A stretch of 64,000 nt of DNA. Origin: an uncultured Erysipelotrichaceae bacterium (lineage in GTDB: Bacteria > Bacillota_I > Bacilli_A > Erysipelotrichales > Erysipelotrichaceae). The notes under the pieces were generated by a model, which ran no database searches, was not told the origin of the DNA, and saw nothing but the letters and a program-made list of their open reading frames with translations. The position numbers and the translations under genes are program-made. Shown one piece after another: positions 1-58,483 of the stretch (its first letter is position 1; each line of letters starts with the position of its first letter). The stretch is taken from NCBI GenBank assembly GCA_944326095.1, contig CALVCO010000001.1, positions 1 through 64,000 on the forward strand, in the 5' to 3' direction.

Positions 1-75
1 GTAGCGCCGTATACGAGACCCGTACGTACGGTGCAATGAGAGGGGCGAAGATTAATTTCTTCCCTCTACTCTATT
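1..75 (+). mobile_element. 3' end of a group II intron (domains V and VI)
   Basis: Positions 4-34 fold into a domain V-like hairpin: arms GCGCCGTA (4-11) and TACGGTGC (27-34), an upper TACG/CGTA helix (12-15 and 21-24) and a two-base CG bulge. This is the pattern of the catalytic hairpin of bacterial group II introns. It is followed by a domain VI-like stem, AGAGGG (39-44) with CCCTCT (62-67), and a terminal ACTCTAT that suits an intron end ending in AY. The intron, and any reverse transcriptase it carries, lies upstream of the window, so the 3' boundary near 74 is an estimate. Confidence 0.72.
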
Positions 76-9343: not shown

Positions 9344-9365
9344 CCCAAGAAAACTTGGGATTTTA
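9344..9365 (+). terminator. Intrinsic terminator of rlmH, possibly shared with the original yolD end
   Basis: CCCAAG (9344-9349), loop AAAA, CTTGGG (9354-9359), then ATTTT. It is a short perfect hairpin. It probably lay between convergent rlmH and yolD before the IS element inserted. Confidence 0.75.
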
Positions 9366-9371
9366 TAAAAC

Positions 9372-9420
9372 AAACGCCTTAAATTCACATTCCTTTAGGT
9401 GTGTGGATACAAGGCGTTTT
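9372..9420. repeat. Right-end region of the IS element: nested hairpins acting as a bidirectional terminator
   Basis: The outer arms AAACGCCTT (9372-9380) and AAGGCGTTT (9411-9419) pair perfectly. Inside, CACA (9386-9389) pairs with TGTG (9400-9403) and CC (9392-9393) with GG (9398-9399), leaving a TT bulge and a TTTA loop. An imperfect subterminal hairpin with bulged bases is what IS200/IS605 TnpA recognises. T-rich sequence follows on either strand, so it can also stop transcription of tnpA and of rlmH. The exact cleavage site cannot be fixed from one copy. Confidence 0.6.
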
Positions 9421-9825
9421 TTAACCTTGATTTTGAATATATTTTTCTATAATTTCTTGAGATACTTGTCCTATACTACATGCAAAATATCCATCAGACC
9501 ATAATATCTTAGATTTCCAATAATACTTAGATAGATATTCACTATGAAAATCCCACATCTTATAAGTACTATATTGTTTTAATTGTTTAACTATTTTTGA
9601 AACTGAGATTTCAGGTCCATAATCTAATAAGATATGAACATGGTCTTTGTCTGTTTCCATCTGAATTATCGAATAACCATATTTTTGTGCGGTATCGTAT
9701 AAAAATTGTTTAATATCATCAGAATATTCAAATGTTTTAAATATTTTCTTACGATATTTTGTTACGAAAATAAGATGAACTTTCATACTAAATTTGGCGT
9801 GACCATTTCGCTTGTAATCATCCAT
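9421..9825 (-). CDS. tnpA: IS200/IS605-family Y1 transposase TnpA
   Basis: The 134 residues form a complete single-strand transposase: the opening KFSMKVHLIFVTKYRKKIF, the HUH metal motif His62-Val-His64 (KDHVHILL) and a C-terminal helix with Tyr129 and Gln133 (EKYIQNQ). This matches the Tyr-xxx-Gln spacing of the nucleophile helix in TnpA of IS608. It would excise and insert the element as single-stranded DNA. The start overlaps the end of iscB by 43 bases and there is no strong ribosome-binding site, so it is likely coupled to iscB translation. Full tnpA-iscB pairs are less common than lone iscB copies. Confidence 0.95.
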   Translation of the reverse strand: MDDYKRNGHAKFSMKVHLIFVTKYRKKIFKTFEYSDDIKQFLYDTAQKYGYSIIQMETDKDHVHILLDYGPEISVSKIVKQLKQYSTYKMWDFHSEYLSKYYWKSKILWSDGYFACSIGQVSQEIIEKYIQNQG

Positions 9826-11057
9826 GACGATCTTGCTGTTAATCTAATAAGATTTTTAAGTTTAGGTGTTTTGAATCCTGTAGGCATATTACTAAAATCT
9901 ATCTTATTTCCTATAATGTCCATCAATAATGCATATCCAGATGACATTCTACCTTTAATGAAATATTCTTTACCAAAATATTTGACCTTATCAAATTTTT
10001 TAAAGCCTAATATTTTTTTAGTTGTAATTGGTTGTCCAGAGCGAACACCTTTTGTTTTTTGAAAATCTCCACACGCAACACATTTCTTTTTAAAAAGATT
10101 AGTTTTAATGTTAAACTTACTTCCTTGAGTTGCAATAACACAAGCATCTAAATAGTGTTCTTTACCTACATTAAGAAGTAAACGATTCGCTTTAGTTATA
10201 TAGCCAAATGTTTCTAAAGCTTCAGGATAAATCTTAAATAATTGTTTACGAATCATATTCATTTGTATAGCATATTTTAGATTTCCTTTTAGTTTACCTT
10301 TTAAATTAAGTTTAATATTTCCTGCATGAAGTTCTTTATGACAAGTATGGCACAAAGTTATGAGATTACTTTGATCATCTGAACCACCTTGACTTCTATA
10401 AATAATATGATGAACTTCAAGCTTACTATCTTTGTGCTTGCCTTTACAATACTGACAAGTATAATCATCTCTATTTAAAATCATCGCTTTAGTATTTTCA
10501 AATCCATAATTTGGACCTTTTTGATAACCCCAATGTCTAATATTTTGGTTTACTAAACTTGGATTTTTCATAAGATGAGTATCAAATTGACTTGTTTCAA
10601 AAACCAATTTTTTAATAGGTAAAATAGATTTAATATATTCTATTTCTTTAACATGACTATGTAATTTACTTTGCATTGTTGGACTAAATCTATTTGCTTT
10701 TTTAGAGCTACCTCTATTAAGCCATCTTGCTTTTCTATATCGTGTTTTTCGATTTCTACGACTACGACGGTATTTTCTTCTTTGATCCATTTTACTGGTA
10801 ATATCATTTCTAACTATAACTTCAGACATATAAACAATATCACCATTTTGATTACTAACAGCAGCACCAATAGTACCACTTCCTGTATCTACACCAAGTG
10901 TTAAATCTTGAACGTAGGTTGTTGTGTCATAATTTAATTTAATCGTAAATGGTTCACGACATTTAACTTTTGCTTTACCTTGTTTTAGTAATAATCTTGC
11001 TATTGGATTACTACAAGGCATTAAAGGTTTACCTTGTTTTGAAATTACATAAACCAT
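9783..11057 (-). CDS. iscB: IscB: OMEGA RNA-guided HNH/RuvC endonuclease
   Basis: The 424 residues show every IscB part in order: the N-terminal PLMP motif (GKPLMP, 9-14), RuvC-I (LGVDTGS, Asp57), the arginine-rich bridge helix (about 92-115, RRKYRRSRRNRKTRYRKARW), RuvC-II (LVFETSQFD, Glu154), a zinc-finger HNH domain (Cys201/204, His216/217, Asn231, Cys236/239, His240), RuvC-III (EHYLDACVIA, His301 and Asp304), and a C-terminal domain (about 310-424) of the kind that reads the TAM. All catalytic residues are present, so it is a predicted active nuclease. AAGGAG precedes the ATG by a normal spacing. IscB is distinct from TnpB, which has no HNH insert or bridge of this type. Confidence 0.96.
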   Translation of the reverse strand: MVYVISKQGKPLMPCSNPIARLLLKQGKAKVKCREPFTIKLNYDTTTYVQDLTLGVDTGSGTIGAAVSNQNGDIVYMSEVIVRNDITSKMDQRRKYRRSRRNRKTRYRKARWLNRGSSKKANRFSPTMQSKLHSHVKEIEYIKSILPIKKLVFETSQFDTHLMKNPSLVNQNIRHWGYQKGPNYGFENTKAMILNRDDYTCQYCKGKHKDSKLEVHHIIYRSQGGSDDQSNLITLCHTCHKELHAGNIKLNLKGKLKGNLKYAIQMNMIRKQLFKIYPEALETFGYITKANRLLLNVGKEHYLDACVIATQGSKFNIKTNLFKKKCVACGDFQKTKGVRSGQPITTKKILGFKKFDKVKYFGKEYFIKGRMSSGYALLMDIIGNKIDFSNMPTGFKTPKLKNLIRLTARSSWMITSEMVTPNLV

Positions 11058-11071
11058 AATAAGGGCTCCTT

Positions 11072-11360
11072 ATAAATTCTCTGCTTAAAAGCAGGTAGTG
11101 CGTACTATACTATACTGTCACCATATAGTTATTCCGACGTCAACTCGACAATGATATAAAGGCTTTTTACATCCATATCACAAGGCTTTGCTTACTCTAA
11201 CCTAACTTAAATATGTACGATAGAGCGATGGTCTGTTGCGTCAACCAAAGGTATCATGACCTAAATATCGTAGTATCCATTTCTGAATACTTAGTCTGGT
11301 GAACTATTTAACAGAAGCCACTGACCTTTACGGTCTGTGGTAGTTCACTCTATTTCGTGA
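11072..11360 (-). ncRNA. Predicted omega-RNA (HEARO-type) of IscB, guide at its 5' end
   Basis: About 290 bases between yolD and iscB lack a plausible gene and contain stems. Clear ones are CCAC-T-GACC (11318-11326) with GGTC-T-GTGG (11332-11340), an outer stem GTGAACTA (11299-11306) with TAGTTCAC (11341-11348), and CTGCT (11081-11085) with AGCAG (11090-11094) just ahead of the iscB ribosome-binding site. In known IscB systems the omega-RNA lies upstream of iscB and its roughly 16-nt guide comes from DNA flanking the left end. Here that would be TCACGAAATAGAGTGA, the end of yolD including its stop codon. Both ends of the RNA are predicted, not known. Confidence 0.7.
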
Positions 11361-11671
11361 GTTAATTCGATATCTATAATATTTTTAATAGGAATTATTT
11401 TATTTACAATTTGGATAGTTTTATGATTAATTAAATCAATCTTAGCTACCATACCACATACTTTAATATATTCTTCATCAGCAAAATATATTACCGTAAT
11501 AATATCATTTGGTTTTATCATATGAATTTTCCATTCTAGTTGGGCATATTCATCTTCTGATAATTGACGACACTTTACGACAACTTTTTCTTGTTGTCTA
11601 AGATATTCTTGGAAACCTTTTAAAGCATCAAAACTTAAAAATAATTTAGCACGATCTACTTTATTGGGCAT
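11345..11671 (-). CDS. YolD-like protein
   Basis: A protein of about 108 residues with the YolD-like pattern (DRAKLFLSFDALKGFQEYL, then ITVIYFADEEYIKVCGMVAKID and IPIKNIIDIE). YolD-like proteins are encoded next to UvrX-type Y-family polymerases; their role is not established. The start at ATG 11671 has GGAGG just upstream; an in-frame TTG at 11683 overlaps that site. It overlaps the polymerase gene by 11 bases. Its stop codon sits in the GTGA at the IS insertion point, so the coding sequence is kept intact while its original downstream region is displaced. Confidence 0.85.
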   Translation of the reverse strand: MPNKVDRAKLFLSFDALKGFQEYLRQQEKVVVKCRQLSEDEYAQLEWKIHMIKPNDIITVIYFADEEYIKVCGMVAKIDLINHKTIQIVNKIIPIKNIIDIELTHEIE

Positions 11672-12920
11672 TATGTCCTCCAATTAATTTATTACGCTTG
11701 ATAGTTGTAGCCTTTGGTAAAAGATTCATGCCTTTAAAGATAGCATTTTTACCATAACGATTTTTAATAGTTGAAATGGTATGTTGTAAATTCTTTTCTT
11801 CAACAATATTTTCATAATTGTTAAAAAGATCATATTGTTCATAGATTTCATTTTGTAAATTGCCAAAAGAAATGCCAATTTGTCTTATTTGATATATTGG
11901 ATTAGTTATTTTTTTAAATAGGTCTATAAATTCATTAGTTAATATACTACAAGAATTGGTAGTACAAGTTATTTTACATGAACCTCTTGATGCTTTATGT
12001 ACATTTTTAGTATAGCCAATATATAAAGATATATGATTAGTAACTAGATGCATATCTGAAAGGCGTAATATGGTTACTTCTACCATTTCTTTTAAAATTA
12101 ATAAGGCATGTTCATAATCATAATCTTCAAATAATATTTGTGAATTGGATATAGAATTAGTTTTAGGTTTATAATTTTTAATATCTTGAATTGTTGTTGG
12201 TTCTTGTCCCCAAGCATGATCTATTAAATATTCAGCATTGATGCCAAATTCTTTATATAAGATATCTTCAGGATAGTGAGCTAAATCATACATGTCTTTA
12301 ATTCCTAATTTGTTTAAATGATTAGATATGCCTTTACCAATGTGCCAAAAATCTGTTAAAGGTTGATGATGCCATAAAGTAGCTTTAAAGATTTCTTCAT
12401 CTAAAAAAGCTAAATTATCTTTGGTATGTTTAGCACTAATATCTAAGGCTATCTTAGTTAAATATAAATTAGTGCCAATACCACAAGCAGCAGTTATGCC
12501 AGTGGTTTGTTTTACATCATTAATTATTTTTTTAGCCAATTCTTTAGGTGATAATTTATATAAATGTAAATAGGGCGTAACATCAAGAAAGCATTCATCA
12601 ATGGAATATACATGAATATCTTGAGAACTTATATATTTTAGATATATGCCATAAATTTGTGCTGAATATTCCATATATTTTTTCATTCTAGGTTTAGCAA
12701 TTATATAATCAATATTCTCGGGTATTTCATATAAACGACAACGATTTTTAATTCCTTGAGCTTTTAATTTAGGAGATATAGCTAAACAAATAGCTCCTTT
12801 ACCTCTAGAAGGATCGGCTACTACTAAATTTACTTTAAAGGGGTCTAAACCTCTTTCTACACATTCACAAGAAGCATAAAAAGTTTTTAAATCGATGCAT
12901 AAATATCTTTTATTTTCCAT
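11661..12920 (-). CDS. Y-family DNA polymerase, UvrX/UmuC-like
   Basis: The 419-residue protein starts CIDLKTFYASCECVERGLDP, the Y-family palm motif with the first metal-binding Asp and the Tyr steric gate region. It has SIDECFLDVTPY, carrying the catalytic Asp-Glu pair, and a helix-hairpin-helix region (HIGKGISNHLNKLGI). The SIDEC form and pairing with YolD point to the UvrX/YqjW branch rather than housekeeping DinB. These are error-prone translesion polymerases induced by DNA damage. AAAGGAGA precedes the ATG. The promoter contains a candidate operator for the divergent LexA-like repressor. Confidence 0.92.
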   Translation of the reverse strand: MENKRYLCIDLKTFYASCECVERGLDPFKVNLVVADPSRGKGAICLAISPKLKAQGIKNRCRLYEIPENIDYIIAKPRMKKYMEYSAQIYGIYLKYISSQDIHVYSIDECFLDVTPYLHLYKLSPKELAKKIINDVKQTTGITAACGIGTNLYLTKIALDISAKHTKDNLAFLDEEIFKATLWHHQPLTDFWHIGKGISNHLNKLGIKDMYDLAHYPEDILYKEFGINAEYLIDHAWGQEPTTIQDIKNYKPKTNSISNSQILFEDYDYEHALLILKEMVEVTILRLSDMHLVTNHISLYIGYTKNVHKASRGSCKITCTTNSCSILTNEFIDLFKKITNPIYQIRQIGISFGNLQNEIYEQYDLFNNYENIVEEKNLQHTISTIKNRYGKNAIFKGMNLLPKATTIKRNKLIGGHNAQ

Positions 12921-12942
12921 TTTGTAAATCTCCTTTATGGAT

Positions 12943-13052
12943 ATTATAGGCTATAAAGTTTCCTAAAACAACTAAAATAAGAAACTTTTTAAGAATAAAA
13001 TCTTAATAATTTCTTTTTTAAAGTAATTATGATACAATTTAGGAAACTGGAG
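12943..13052. promoter_or_regulatory. Divergent promoters and candidate operators between the polymerase operon and the LexA-like repressor
   Basis: For the polymerase (minus strand): -35 TTGTTT (12966-12971), 17-base spacer, -10 TATAAT (12943-12948). The spacer holds TTTAGGAAACT (12957-12967 read on minus). For the repressor (plus strand): weak -35 TTTCTT (13010-13015), 17 bases, -10 TACAAT (13033-13038). The identical 11-mer TTTAGGAAACT (13038-13048) follows it directly. A third AAGAAACTT lies at 12979-12987. The same box in the sense direction of both genes is a strong operator candidate. The Bacillus SOS box GAAC-N4-GTTC is absent. Confidence 0.65.
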
Positions 13053-13060
13053 ATAGGCTT

Positions 13061-13663
13061 ATGGATTTAAAGGAAATATTACAAAGTTATAAGGATAAAA
13101 CAGGTTATAATAATGATCTTTTAGCTACTAAATTAGGAGTTACAAAATCTGCTGTTTCTAAATGGTTATCTGGACAAGTTAAAAAAGTAAAGCCAGAAAC
13201 GATGGAAAGAATATCTACTCTAGTTGGTTATGATATTGGACCATTTTTAAAAGGACAGGTAGTAAGTTTTAAAAAGCCAATATTGGGATATGTTAAAGCA
13301 GGTTATGATCTTTTTAGAGAGGAACAATATCTAGGATATGAAGAAGTAAATGCTAATGAAAATATTCAAGGTGATTATTTTTTGCAGGTTGTAGGTGATT
13401 CGATGATAGGTGATGGGATCATGGAAGGTTCACTTGCTTATGTAAAACAATGTAATCAAGTTAGTAATAATTCTATTGCCGTAGTAGCTATAGGTGATGA
13501 TGAAGTTACGATAAAGCGAGTTATCAAACGCCCTGAAGTATTTATTTTGGAAGCTTCAAATCCTAATGTAAAAGCTCGCTATTTTACATATGAAGAGGTT
13601 GAGAATTTACCTGTAAGAATCATTGGCAAAGTATTATATGTTAAGACAATACTTGGTCGATGA
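13061..13663 (+). CDS. LexA-like autocleaving repressor (XRE HTH plus S24 peptidase)
   Basis: The 200-residue protein has an XRE-type helix-turn-helix (residues about 17-50, LATKLGVTKSAVSKWLSG) and a C-terminal S24 domain. The self-cleavage machinery is complete: an Ala80-Gly81 scissile bond (VKAGYD), Ser114 (GDSM) and Lys152 (VTIKRV). In LexA/CI-type proteins RecA filaments trigger this cleavage and relieve repression. It probably represses itself and the divergent translesion polymerase operon. GGAG lies 12-9 bases before ATG 13061. It differs from classical LexA in using an XRE rather than a winged HTH, so it may be a host SOS regulator or a domesticated phage repressor. Confidence 0.9.
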   Translation: MDLKEILQSYKDKTGYNNDLLATKLGVTKSAVSKWLSGQVKKVKPETMERISTLVGYDIGPFLKGQVVSFKKPILGYVKAGYDLFREEQYLGYEEVNANENIQGDYFLQVVGDSMIGDGIMEGSLAYVKQCNQVSNNSIAVVAIGDDEVTIKRVIKRPEVFILEASNPNVKARYFTYEEVENLPVRIIGKVLYVKTILGR

Positions 13664-46639: not shown

Positions 46640-46758
46640 AAATAACTTCAGGGATGAGTGTAATTCTCTACTGGCGGTATACTCCGCGAGCCAATATTGG
46701 CATGAATCGGTGCAATTCCGATAGCAACAGTTAAAGTCTGGATGGAAGAAGGTTATTT
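46640..46758 (+). promoter_or_regulatory. FMN riboswitch (RFN element)
   Basis: The conserved RFN core is plain to read: CTTCAGGGATGAGTG, CTACTGGCGGTATACTCCGC (46670-46689 region), the AGCCA arm, CGGTGCAATTCCG, CAACAGTTAAAGTCTGGATG and AGAAGG. P1 is closed by AAATAAC (46640-46646) with GTTATTT (46752-46758). FMN binding lowers expression in this class. It precedes ribU, so it senses flavin sufficiency and shuts riboflavin import. Confidence 0.96.
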
Positions 46759-58124: not shown

Positions 58125-58483
58125 TGGTGGAGATGAGGAGAATCGAACTCCTGTCCAAGAATAGTCCCACATTCAAACGTCTACAGTTTAGCTTACTGTT
58201 GGATAAGACGATCATATGTCAGTAAGCATACCATGATCGAATTTGCCCATTGAATTTTCGTATCTTATAATAGGACGATTATAAGATCTTATTCATTTAA
58301 AAATACGCTACATAATCATTAAATGACAACTGATATGTAGGGGCTGCAAGCCAGGTCTAGTTAGGCTATATTAAGCAGCAAAAGATAATCTGTTATTTCC
58401 GTTTATTTTTTTTTAGTGATTTAGGTCCACAATACCACTGCAATTTGAATCAAACATAAACCTGTCGAAACCAAGACATCCCC
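58125..58483 (-). ncRNA. ssrA: Transfer-messenger RNA (tmRNA, 10Sa RNA)
   Basis: On the minus strand, the 5' end GGGGATGTCTTGGTTTCGACAGG-type start (58483 downwards) and the 3' TGGACAGGAGTTCGATTCTCC-type T arm ending CATCTCCACCA (to 58125) are diagnostic. GGGGATG pairs with CATCTCC as the acceptor stem, and CCA is encoded. The tag frame ends GCT GCT TAA at 58371-58379. Reading back to an in-frame TAA (58413-58415) gives at most KKINGNNRLSFAA, so the proteolysis tag ends LSFAA. The first tag codon is uncertain. tmRNA rescues stalled ribosomes with SmpB. Confidence 0.95.

What the first reader, a model, noticed from the sequence alone, without database searches (positions are those of the whole stretch)
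9372..11360. Complete TnpA + IscB + omega-RNA element with all catalytic residues intact
One element carries a Y1 transposase (HUH, Tyr129/Gln133), an IscB with PLMP, bridge helix, three RuvC motifs and a full zinc HNH, and a structured RNA region upstream. Most iscB copies known to me stand alone without tnpA. An autonomous, undamaged copy from this lineage is a good candidate for an active OMEGA nuclease.
Basis: partly seen in the sequence, partly recalled or inferred. Interest (0 to 1): 0.85.

Follow-up and report, generated by a model that had tools for sequence, protein, structure and literature searches.

The report
Autonomous IscB–TnpA transposon with guide RNA
This is an intact, single-copy jumping gene that carries its own transposase and an RNA-guided DNA cutter related to the ancestor of Cas9; such complete copies are uncommon, but the kind is already known.

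Summary
On the minus strand lie a HEARO/omega-RNA (11348-11128, above Rfam's cut-off), iscB (424 aa, RuvC, HNH and zinc residues present) and tnpA (134 aa, HUH, Tyr129, Gln133), iscB and tnpA overlapping by 43 bp. The RNA fold shows strong covariation (42 of 75 pairs changed on both sides). Both ends fold into hairpins. An exact empty site for a 65%-identical relative in Enterococcus cecorum fixes its ends: GTGAAC...TTTT, no target duplication, just 5' of ATAAAA. By homology the window copy is 9367-11348, in the stop codon of a yolD-like gene; two genomes of the genus have the yolD-rlmH junction without it. The likely target motif of IscB is ATAAA, also the reverse complement of the inferred TnpA target; the guide would be host flank 11364-11349. 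The overlap recurs in Enterococcus and Niallia; tnpA is absent, truncated or altered at a catalytic residue in 10 of 12 loci of this lineage. It is a new member of a known kind (autonomous ISC transposon). Activity is predicted, not shown. Two side findings deserve follow-up: IS110-like insertions at one nucleotide of ISC elements, and a strong orientation bias of ISC copies.

The parts
9367..11348 (-). whole element, 1982 bp; starts GTGAACTACC, ends GGCGTTTGTTTT
   Evidence: ends placed by homology with the exact empty site of the E. cecorum relative; yolD-rlmH junction without the element in G196 and G195
11128..11348 (-). omega-RNA (HEARO, RF02033)
   Evidence: 95.1 bits, gathering score 83; covariation with 12 relatives
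11349..11364 (-). predicted 16-nt guide, host sequence of the yolD-like gene
   Evidence: inferred from the IscB rule that the guide is 5' of the omega-RNA scaffold and that 16 nt suffice (PMC9640706, passages); sequence
9783..11057 (-). iscB, 424 aa: PLMP, bridge helix, RuvC I-III, HNH, C-terminal region
9421..9825 (-). tnpA, Y1 transposase of IS200/IS605 type, 134 aa
9783..9825 (-). 43-bp overlap of the iscB end with the tnpA start
   Evidence: similar overlaps in L055 and L057
9372..9419 (.). subterminal hairpin at the tnpA side
   Evidence: DNA fold z -4.36
11300..11347 (.). subterminal hairpin at the omega-RNA side, also the first helices of the RNA
   Evidence: DNA fold z -3.90; helices 1-2
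9362..9366 (-). ATAAA flanking the right end: predicted IscB target-adjacent motif and reverse complement of the predicted TnpA target TTTAT
   Evidence: OrufIscB prefers ATAAA (PMC13180657, passages)
11345..11347 (-). TGA stop of the yolD-like gene (11345-11668), now supplied by the element
9344..9359 (.). CCCAAG-TTTT-CTTGGG hairpin just outside the element, possibly the end of the host operon
   Evidence: read by eye; a CCAAG-TTTT-CTTGG hairpin follows yolD in G196, which lacks the element

Best explanation
It is a complete, probably functional autonomous ISC transposon of the IS200/IS605 superfamily. TnpA recognises the two end hairpins on the strand complementary to iscB, cuts next to TTTAT and moves the element as single-stranded DNA without target duplication. 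Transcription entering from the host gene upstream (here behind dinB-yolD) would make an RNA whose 5' end is host flank (guide) followed by the omega-RNA scaffold, and the mRNA of iscB and tnpA. IscB loaded with this RNA should cut the restored empty site, which carries the guide sequence followed by ATAAA, so that repair from a sister copy brings the element back. Shown: genes, residues, RNA fold by covariation, ends and empty site of the relative, flanking motif. Inferred: activity, guide use, target motif, polarity of TnpA, host-driven transcription and the retention mechanism.
For: Families and residues; Foldseek puts IscB structures on top (8csz E 1.4e-19; model pLDDT only 64); RNA covariation: 42 of 75 pairs changed on both sides, 0 of 500 shuffles as high, slid controls 4-13; exact ends and empty site in E. 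cecorum, where the 16 nt before the junction are the same in the filled and the empty allele and are followed by ATAAAA; right flank ATAAA or ATGAA in 10 of 13 distinct loci read, three unassigned (by eye); same iscB-tnpA overlap in L055 and L057.
Against: No expression or activity data. Single copy in its genome. Three of 75 RNA pairs broken. End hairpins have mismatches: the omega-side one folds at -9.9 against -13.9 kcal/mol in L060, though L055 (-9.0) and L133 (-9.5) are no better; the tnpA-side one folds at -12.5 against -13.5 (L055) and -12.6 (L133). The orientation of ISC copies is the reverse of what the lagging-strand rule predicts from the inferred TnpA polarity, so that polarity or the rule may not hold here. 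G196 differs from the window around the junction, so the exact window ends rest on homology.
Confidence: 0.85

Rival explanations
1. A recently immobilised copy: the proteins are still intact by chance, but the end hairpins have decayed so that TnpA no longer moves it, and IscB is idle.
For: Single copy; mismatches in the hairpins and three broken RNA pairs; in 10 of 12 loci of the lineage tnpA is absent, cut or altered.
Against: Both reading frames and the catalytic residues are intact; both hairpins fold far better than shuffles (z -4.36 and -3.90) and with energies close to those of L055 and L133.
Confidence: 0.25
2. The iscB and omega-RNA part is kept for a host function (guide RNA and nuclease domesticated behind the dinB operon), and tnpA is a leftover.
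For: It sits codirectionally at the end of a dinB-yolD gene pair with a divergent HTH plus S24-peptidase regulator, so it could be DNA-damage induced.
Against: tnpA is intact; the five other genomes of the genus searched gave no IscB match, and two of them show the junction without the element, so it is not a conserved host trait.
Confidence: 0.05

Closest known systems
Autonomous ISC transposons (Kapitonov et al. 2015; recalled, paper not held)
   Same: IscB plus Y1 TnpA, terminal palindromes, no target duplication, insertion next to a short target motif (recalled)
   Different: In this lineage tnpA lies downstream of and overlaps iscB; whether that order was described there could not be checked.
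OgeuIscB and OrufIscB OMEGA nucleases
   Same: Domain order and catalytic residues; ATAAA fits the OrufIscB preference (PMC13180657, passages)
   Different: 23% identity in the structural alignment to IscB 8csz; 424 aa against about 495; tnpA present here
IS608 TnpA (ISHp608 transposase)
   Same: Y1 family, HUH, Tyr and Gln in register, subterminal hairpins
   Different: The conserved flanking motif lies at the iscB 3' side, so the inferred active strand is the iscB template strand; the partner is IscB, not TnpB
ISC element of Enterococcus cecorum (L055)
   Same: iscB 65%, tnpA 60% identical, same overlap, omega-RNA, ends and ATAAA flank
   Different: Other host and insertion site; an empty allele exists in another genome named E. 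cecorum

Membership tests
IscB OMEGA nuclease | PLMP, RuvC I-III with D, E, H, D; Arg-rich bridge helix; HNH with catalytic His | tested here: met
IscB OMEGA nuclease | cognate omega-RNA (HEARO) directly upstream, with conserved fold | tested here: met
IscB OMEGA nuclease | RNA-guided DNA cleavage next to a 3' target-adjacent motif | not testable with these tools
   needs an assay; motif only inferred from flanks
IS200/IS605 superfamily | Y1 TnpA with HUH, Tyr and Gln | tested here: met
IS200/IS605 superfamily | subterminal hairpins at both ends | tested here: met
   z -4.36 and -3.90
IS200/IS605 superfamily | no target duplication, insertion next to a fixed short motif | tested here: met
   shown on relative L055 against its empty site; for the window itself inferred
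Autonomous ISC transposon | own intact tnpA inside the same ends | tested here: met
Active transposon | multiple copies or observed mobility | tested here: inconclusive
   one copy in its genome; presence or absence between genomes shows past movement only

The most novel reading that the evidence does not exclude
ISC copies may survive mainly where host transcription runs into the omega-RNA end, because the guide can only be made from the host side. Support: the nearest upstream ORF is codirectional with iscB at 42 of 52 loci that have one (54 examined), against 92 to 89 for intergenic ATAAA sites in the same flanks, and the orientation is the reverse of what the lagging-strand rule would predict from the inferred TnpA polarity. 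Replication direction is an equally good correlate so far.
Probability: 0.2. Interest if true: 0.6.

Novelty: new member of a known kind. Interest (0 to 1): 0.38.

Why it matters
Complete iscB-tnpA-omega-RNA elements are uncommon. This one comes with defined ends, a predicted guide and target motif, and a relative whose empty allele is in hand, so the joint action of TnpA and IscB (moving, and re-cutting the empty site) can be tested in one natural, compact unit of under 2 kb. It does not change what is known about the kind.

Tried and rejected
A direct MAFFT alignment of the two host flanks was uninformative. A viral-contig scan with the E. cecorum TnpA gave nothing. The HEARO hits of G196 without a detected iscB were looked at as possible solo guide RNAs; the two read first (L240, L260) lie at contig ends and are better explained by a multi-copy element broken in assembly; L272, inside a contig, shows no iscB frame behind its RNA and stays open. 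The inserts between omega-RNA and iscB in G277 were first suspected to be introns; Rfam gave no intron match in those loci, and the ORFs are IS110-type transposases (one 59 bits, cut-off 29; the other 27.5 bits, just below it). The idea that the orientation bias proves guide transcription by host genes was not kept as a conclusion: downstream ORFs are codirectional too (27 of 36); the 7 copies scored in the closed genome G277 follow the replication arms, and so do the 5 PF07282 (TnpB-type) hits there, one of them below the family cut-off; only 4 of those 7 copies have a codirectional upstream ORF (L284-L287 yes, L281-L283 no). Motif controls other than ATAAA, intergenic, same to opposite: ATAAAA 41:39, ATRAA 172:146, NTAAA 221:243. 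Rows dropped: L053 from the counts, being the same insertion as L054; L058 from the protein alignment, its iscB having a stop; 18 of 54 loci from the downstream count (no iscB frame found by the simple caller, no ORF within 1000 nt, or no upstream call).

Full report
What is there. On the minus strand of 9367-11348 lie, in order, a HEARO/omega-RNA (11348-11128; RF02033, 95.1 bits, gathering score 83), iscB (11057-9783, 424 aa) and tnpA (9825-9421, 134 aa), iscB and tnpA overlapping by 43 bp. Family models agree: guided_IscB 348.7 bits against a cut-off of 175 and transpos_IS200 130.5 against 55; RRXRR, HNH and Y1_Tnp in Pfam. Against solved proteins iscB matches IscB chains, OgeuIscB among them, at 7e-41 to 1e-40, and tnpA matches the ISHp608 transposase at 5e-17. 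A predicted model of modest confidence (mean pLDDT 64, pTM 0.56) finds IscB structures first (8csz, E 1.4e-19, TM 0.48 by query length).

Catalytic residues. In IscB D57, E154, H301 and D304 (RuvC), H216 and H217 (HNH), and C201, C204, C236 and C239 are present and invariant in an alignment of 11 sequences, the window and 10 relatives. Counted by hand on the alignment, D57, E154, H217, H301 and D304 fall on OgeuIscB D61, E193, H247, H340 and D343, named as catalytic in PMC9640706 (passages seen). TnpA has H62, H64, Y129 and Q133, in register with IS608 TnpA (that these are its catalytic positions is recalled).

The RNA. Thirteen omega-RNA regions (window plus 12 relatives) were aligned. The consensus fold has 75 pairs, 42 with at least one sequence changed on both sides. 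Counted again, 96.9% of cells pair; 42 pairs and 146 cells show changes on both sides, with 0 of 500 shuffles as high and only 4 to 13 pairs when partners are slid. The structure came from the same alignment, so the percentage paired leans its way; the covariation far exceeds the slid versions. The window forms 72 of 75 pairs.

Ends. In Enterococcus cecorum DSM 20682 a relative (L055; iscB 65%, tnpA 60% identical) is present at a site that is empty in another genome named E. cecorum (ESM13AIC1, G288). The two alleles align with a clean junction: the element starts GTGAACTA, ends GATTTT, leaves no duplication, and is followed by ATAAAA; shifting the cut either way raises the mismatches from 3 to 4 or more. 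The same landmarks in the window give 9367-11348, 1982 bp. The rejoined window site would read GAA ATA GAA TAA, restoring a stop of the yolD-like gene; at present the element's own TGA is that stop. Genomes G196 and G195 of the same genus have yolD and rlmH adjacent without the element. Right flanks read ATAAA in 8 and ATGAA in 2 of 13 distinct loci, with 3 not assignable (read by eye). Both ends fold into hairpins well beyond shuffles (z -4.36 and -3.90).

How it probably works. The fixed motif lies at the iscB 3' side, so the strand that TnpA handles is inferred to be the template strand of iscB, with target TTTAT. The same motif read on the other strand, ATAAA, lies where the target-adjacent motif of IscB belongs, 3' of the guide-matching flank. 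OrufIscB takes NTAAA, best ATAAA (PMC13180657, passages). In the E. cecorum pair the 16 nt before the junction are the same in the filled and the empty allele and are followed by ATAAAA, so a guide made from the filled allele would match the empty one. This fits the model in which the nuclease cuts sites the element has left, so that repair restores it (recalled from work on TnpB and IscB; those papers are not held). None of this was measured.

Relatives and rarity. Of 12 distinct loci in the lineage (window, L053/L054 counted once, L055-L062, L133, L134), three have a full-length tnpA beside iscB (window, L055, L057), and L057 has Pro at the first HUH histidine, leaving two with all residues. 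L059, L060, L061, L062 and L133 keep pieces of tnpA; in L133 the iscB frame runs into a tail like that of TnpA, and a separate TnpA, 43% identical, lies about 2.2 kb upstream of its omega-RNA. L053/L054, L056, L058 and L134 gave no TnpA match; L058 may keep the last few codons (by eye). So tnpA next to iscB looks ancestral in this lineage and repeatedly lost. Outside it, 0 of 16 iscB loci held from the same taxonomic family (L004-L019, about 30-42% identical) had a TnpA match in the flanks held, up to 1.5 kb and shorter at contig ends. Five annotated plasmid iscB loci (of 87 plasmid records with a match) showed no feature named tnpA within 2.5 kb; that gene table is incomplete, and in two of them an unnamed ORF begins at the last base of iscB, which I did not examine. 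[quoted passage not shown] HEARO hits over cut-off occur in 5 of 395 genomes of the class sample and 23 of 315 of the order, the own genome counted in both; few candidates per genome were scored in these searches, so these are lower bounds.

Surroundings. Upstream are a dinB-like gene and a yolD-like gene (the latter 26.7 bits, just under Pfam's cut-off of 27.5) and a divergent HTH plus S24-peptidase regulator. An SOS-type control of the operon, and so of the omega-RNA by read-through, is plausible but untested. The own genome has one HEARO, one iscB, and a second Y1 transposase.

Orientation. At 54 distinct HEARO loci (14 of this lineage and its neighbours, 40 others) the nearest upstream ORF of at least 80 aa within 600 nt is codirectional with iscB at 42 and opposed at 10, with 2 lacking one; cut-offs of 60 and 100 aa give 43:11 and 40:10. 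Intergenic ATAAA sites in the same flanks give 92:89, Fisher p 1.1e-4. Downstream ORFs are codirectional at 27 of 36. In the closed genome G277, with dnaA at its start and GC skew changing sign between the stretches sampled at 1.51 and 1.685 Mb, the 7 copies scored (of 20 candidates, so there may be more) all point along the replication forks, although only 4 of them have a codirectional upstream ORF. From the inferred TnpA polarity the lagging-strand rule (PMC6006769, start of abstract in a search listing) would predict the opposite. Cause unknown: replication, selection for transcribed guides and loss by excision are not separated, and the ORF caller is simple.

Verdict. The finding is real and nearly as described. 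It is a new, complete member of a known kind.

Noticed in passing
L283, L284, L286 (genome G277), 374 bp into the ISC element: Three of the 7 near-identical ISC copies examined carry an insertion at the same nucleotide, in the Shine-Dalgarno region between omega-RNA and iscB. The inserts hold two different IS110-type transposase frames (one in L283 and L284, another in L286), so a bridge-RNA-type element may be targeting ISC elements. The far junction was seen for L284 and L286, not for L283. A paper search for IscB, IS110, bridge RNA and HEARO found 28 papers with two of the terms; none of the 12 listed says so in title or start of abstract.
   Followed up: partly
54 HEARO loci and the window: ISC copies are strongly codirectional with the upstream host gene (42:10) and, in G277, with replication (7 of the 7 copies scored).
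   Followed up: partly
G196 C210, C63, C7, C243: A genome of the same genus that lacks the element has four HEARO hits (three over cut-off) of another type and no IscB match; two lie at contig ends, one inside a contig.
   Followed up: partly
L060 and L061 (Lachnoclostridium MAG), L062: ISC copies that keep a complete omega-RNA but only parts of iscB and tnpA.
   Followed up: partly
window 12900-13070: GTTTCCTAAA and TTTTAGGAAAC, inverted half-sites upstream of dinB, also seen in G196 and, with one change, in G195 (by eye).
   Followed up: no
G000:C42:12782-13135 (L219): A second Y1 transposase in the own genome, with a TnpB-like reading frame nearby (the TnpB label is by eye).
   Followed up: no
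window 2-74, 46640-46758, 58125-58483: Group II intron match, FMN riboswitch and tmRNA.
   Followed up: no
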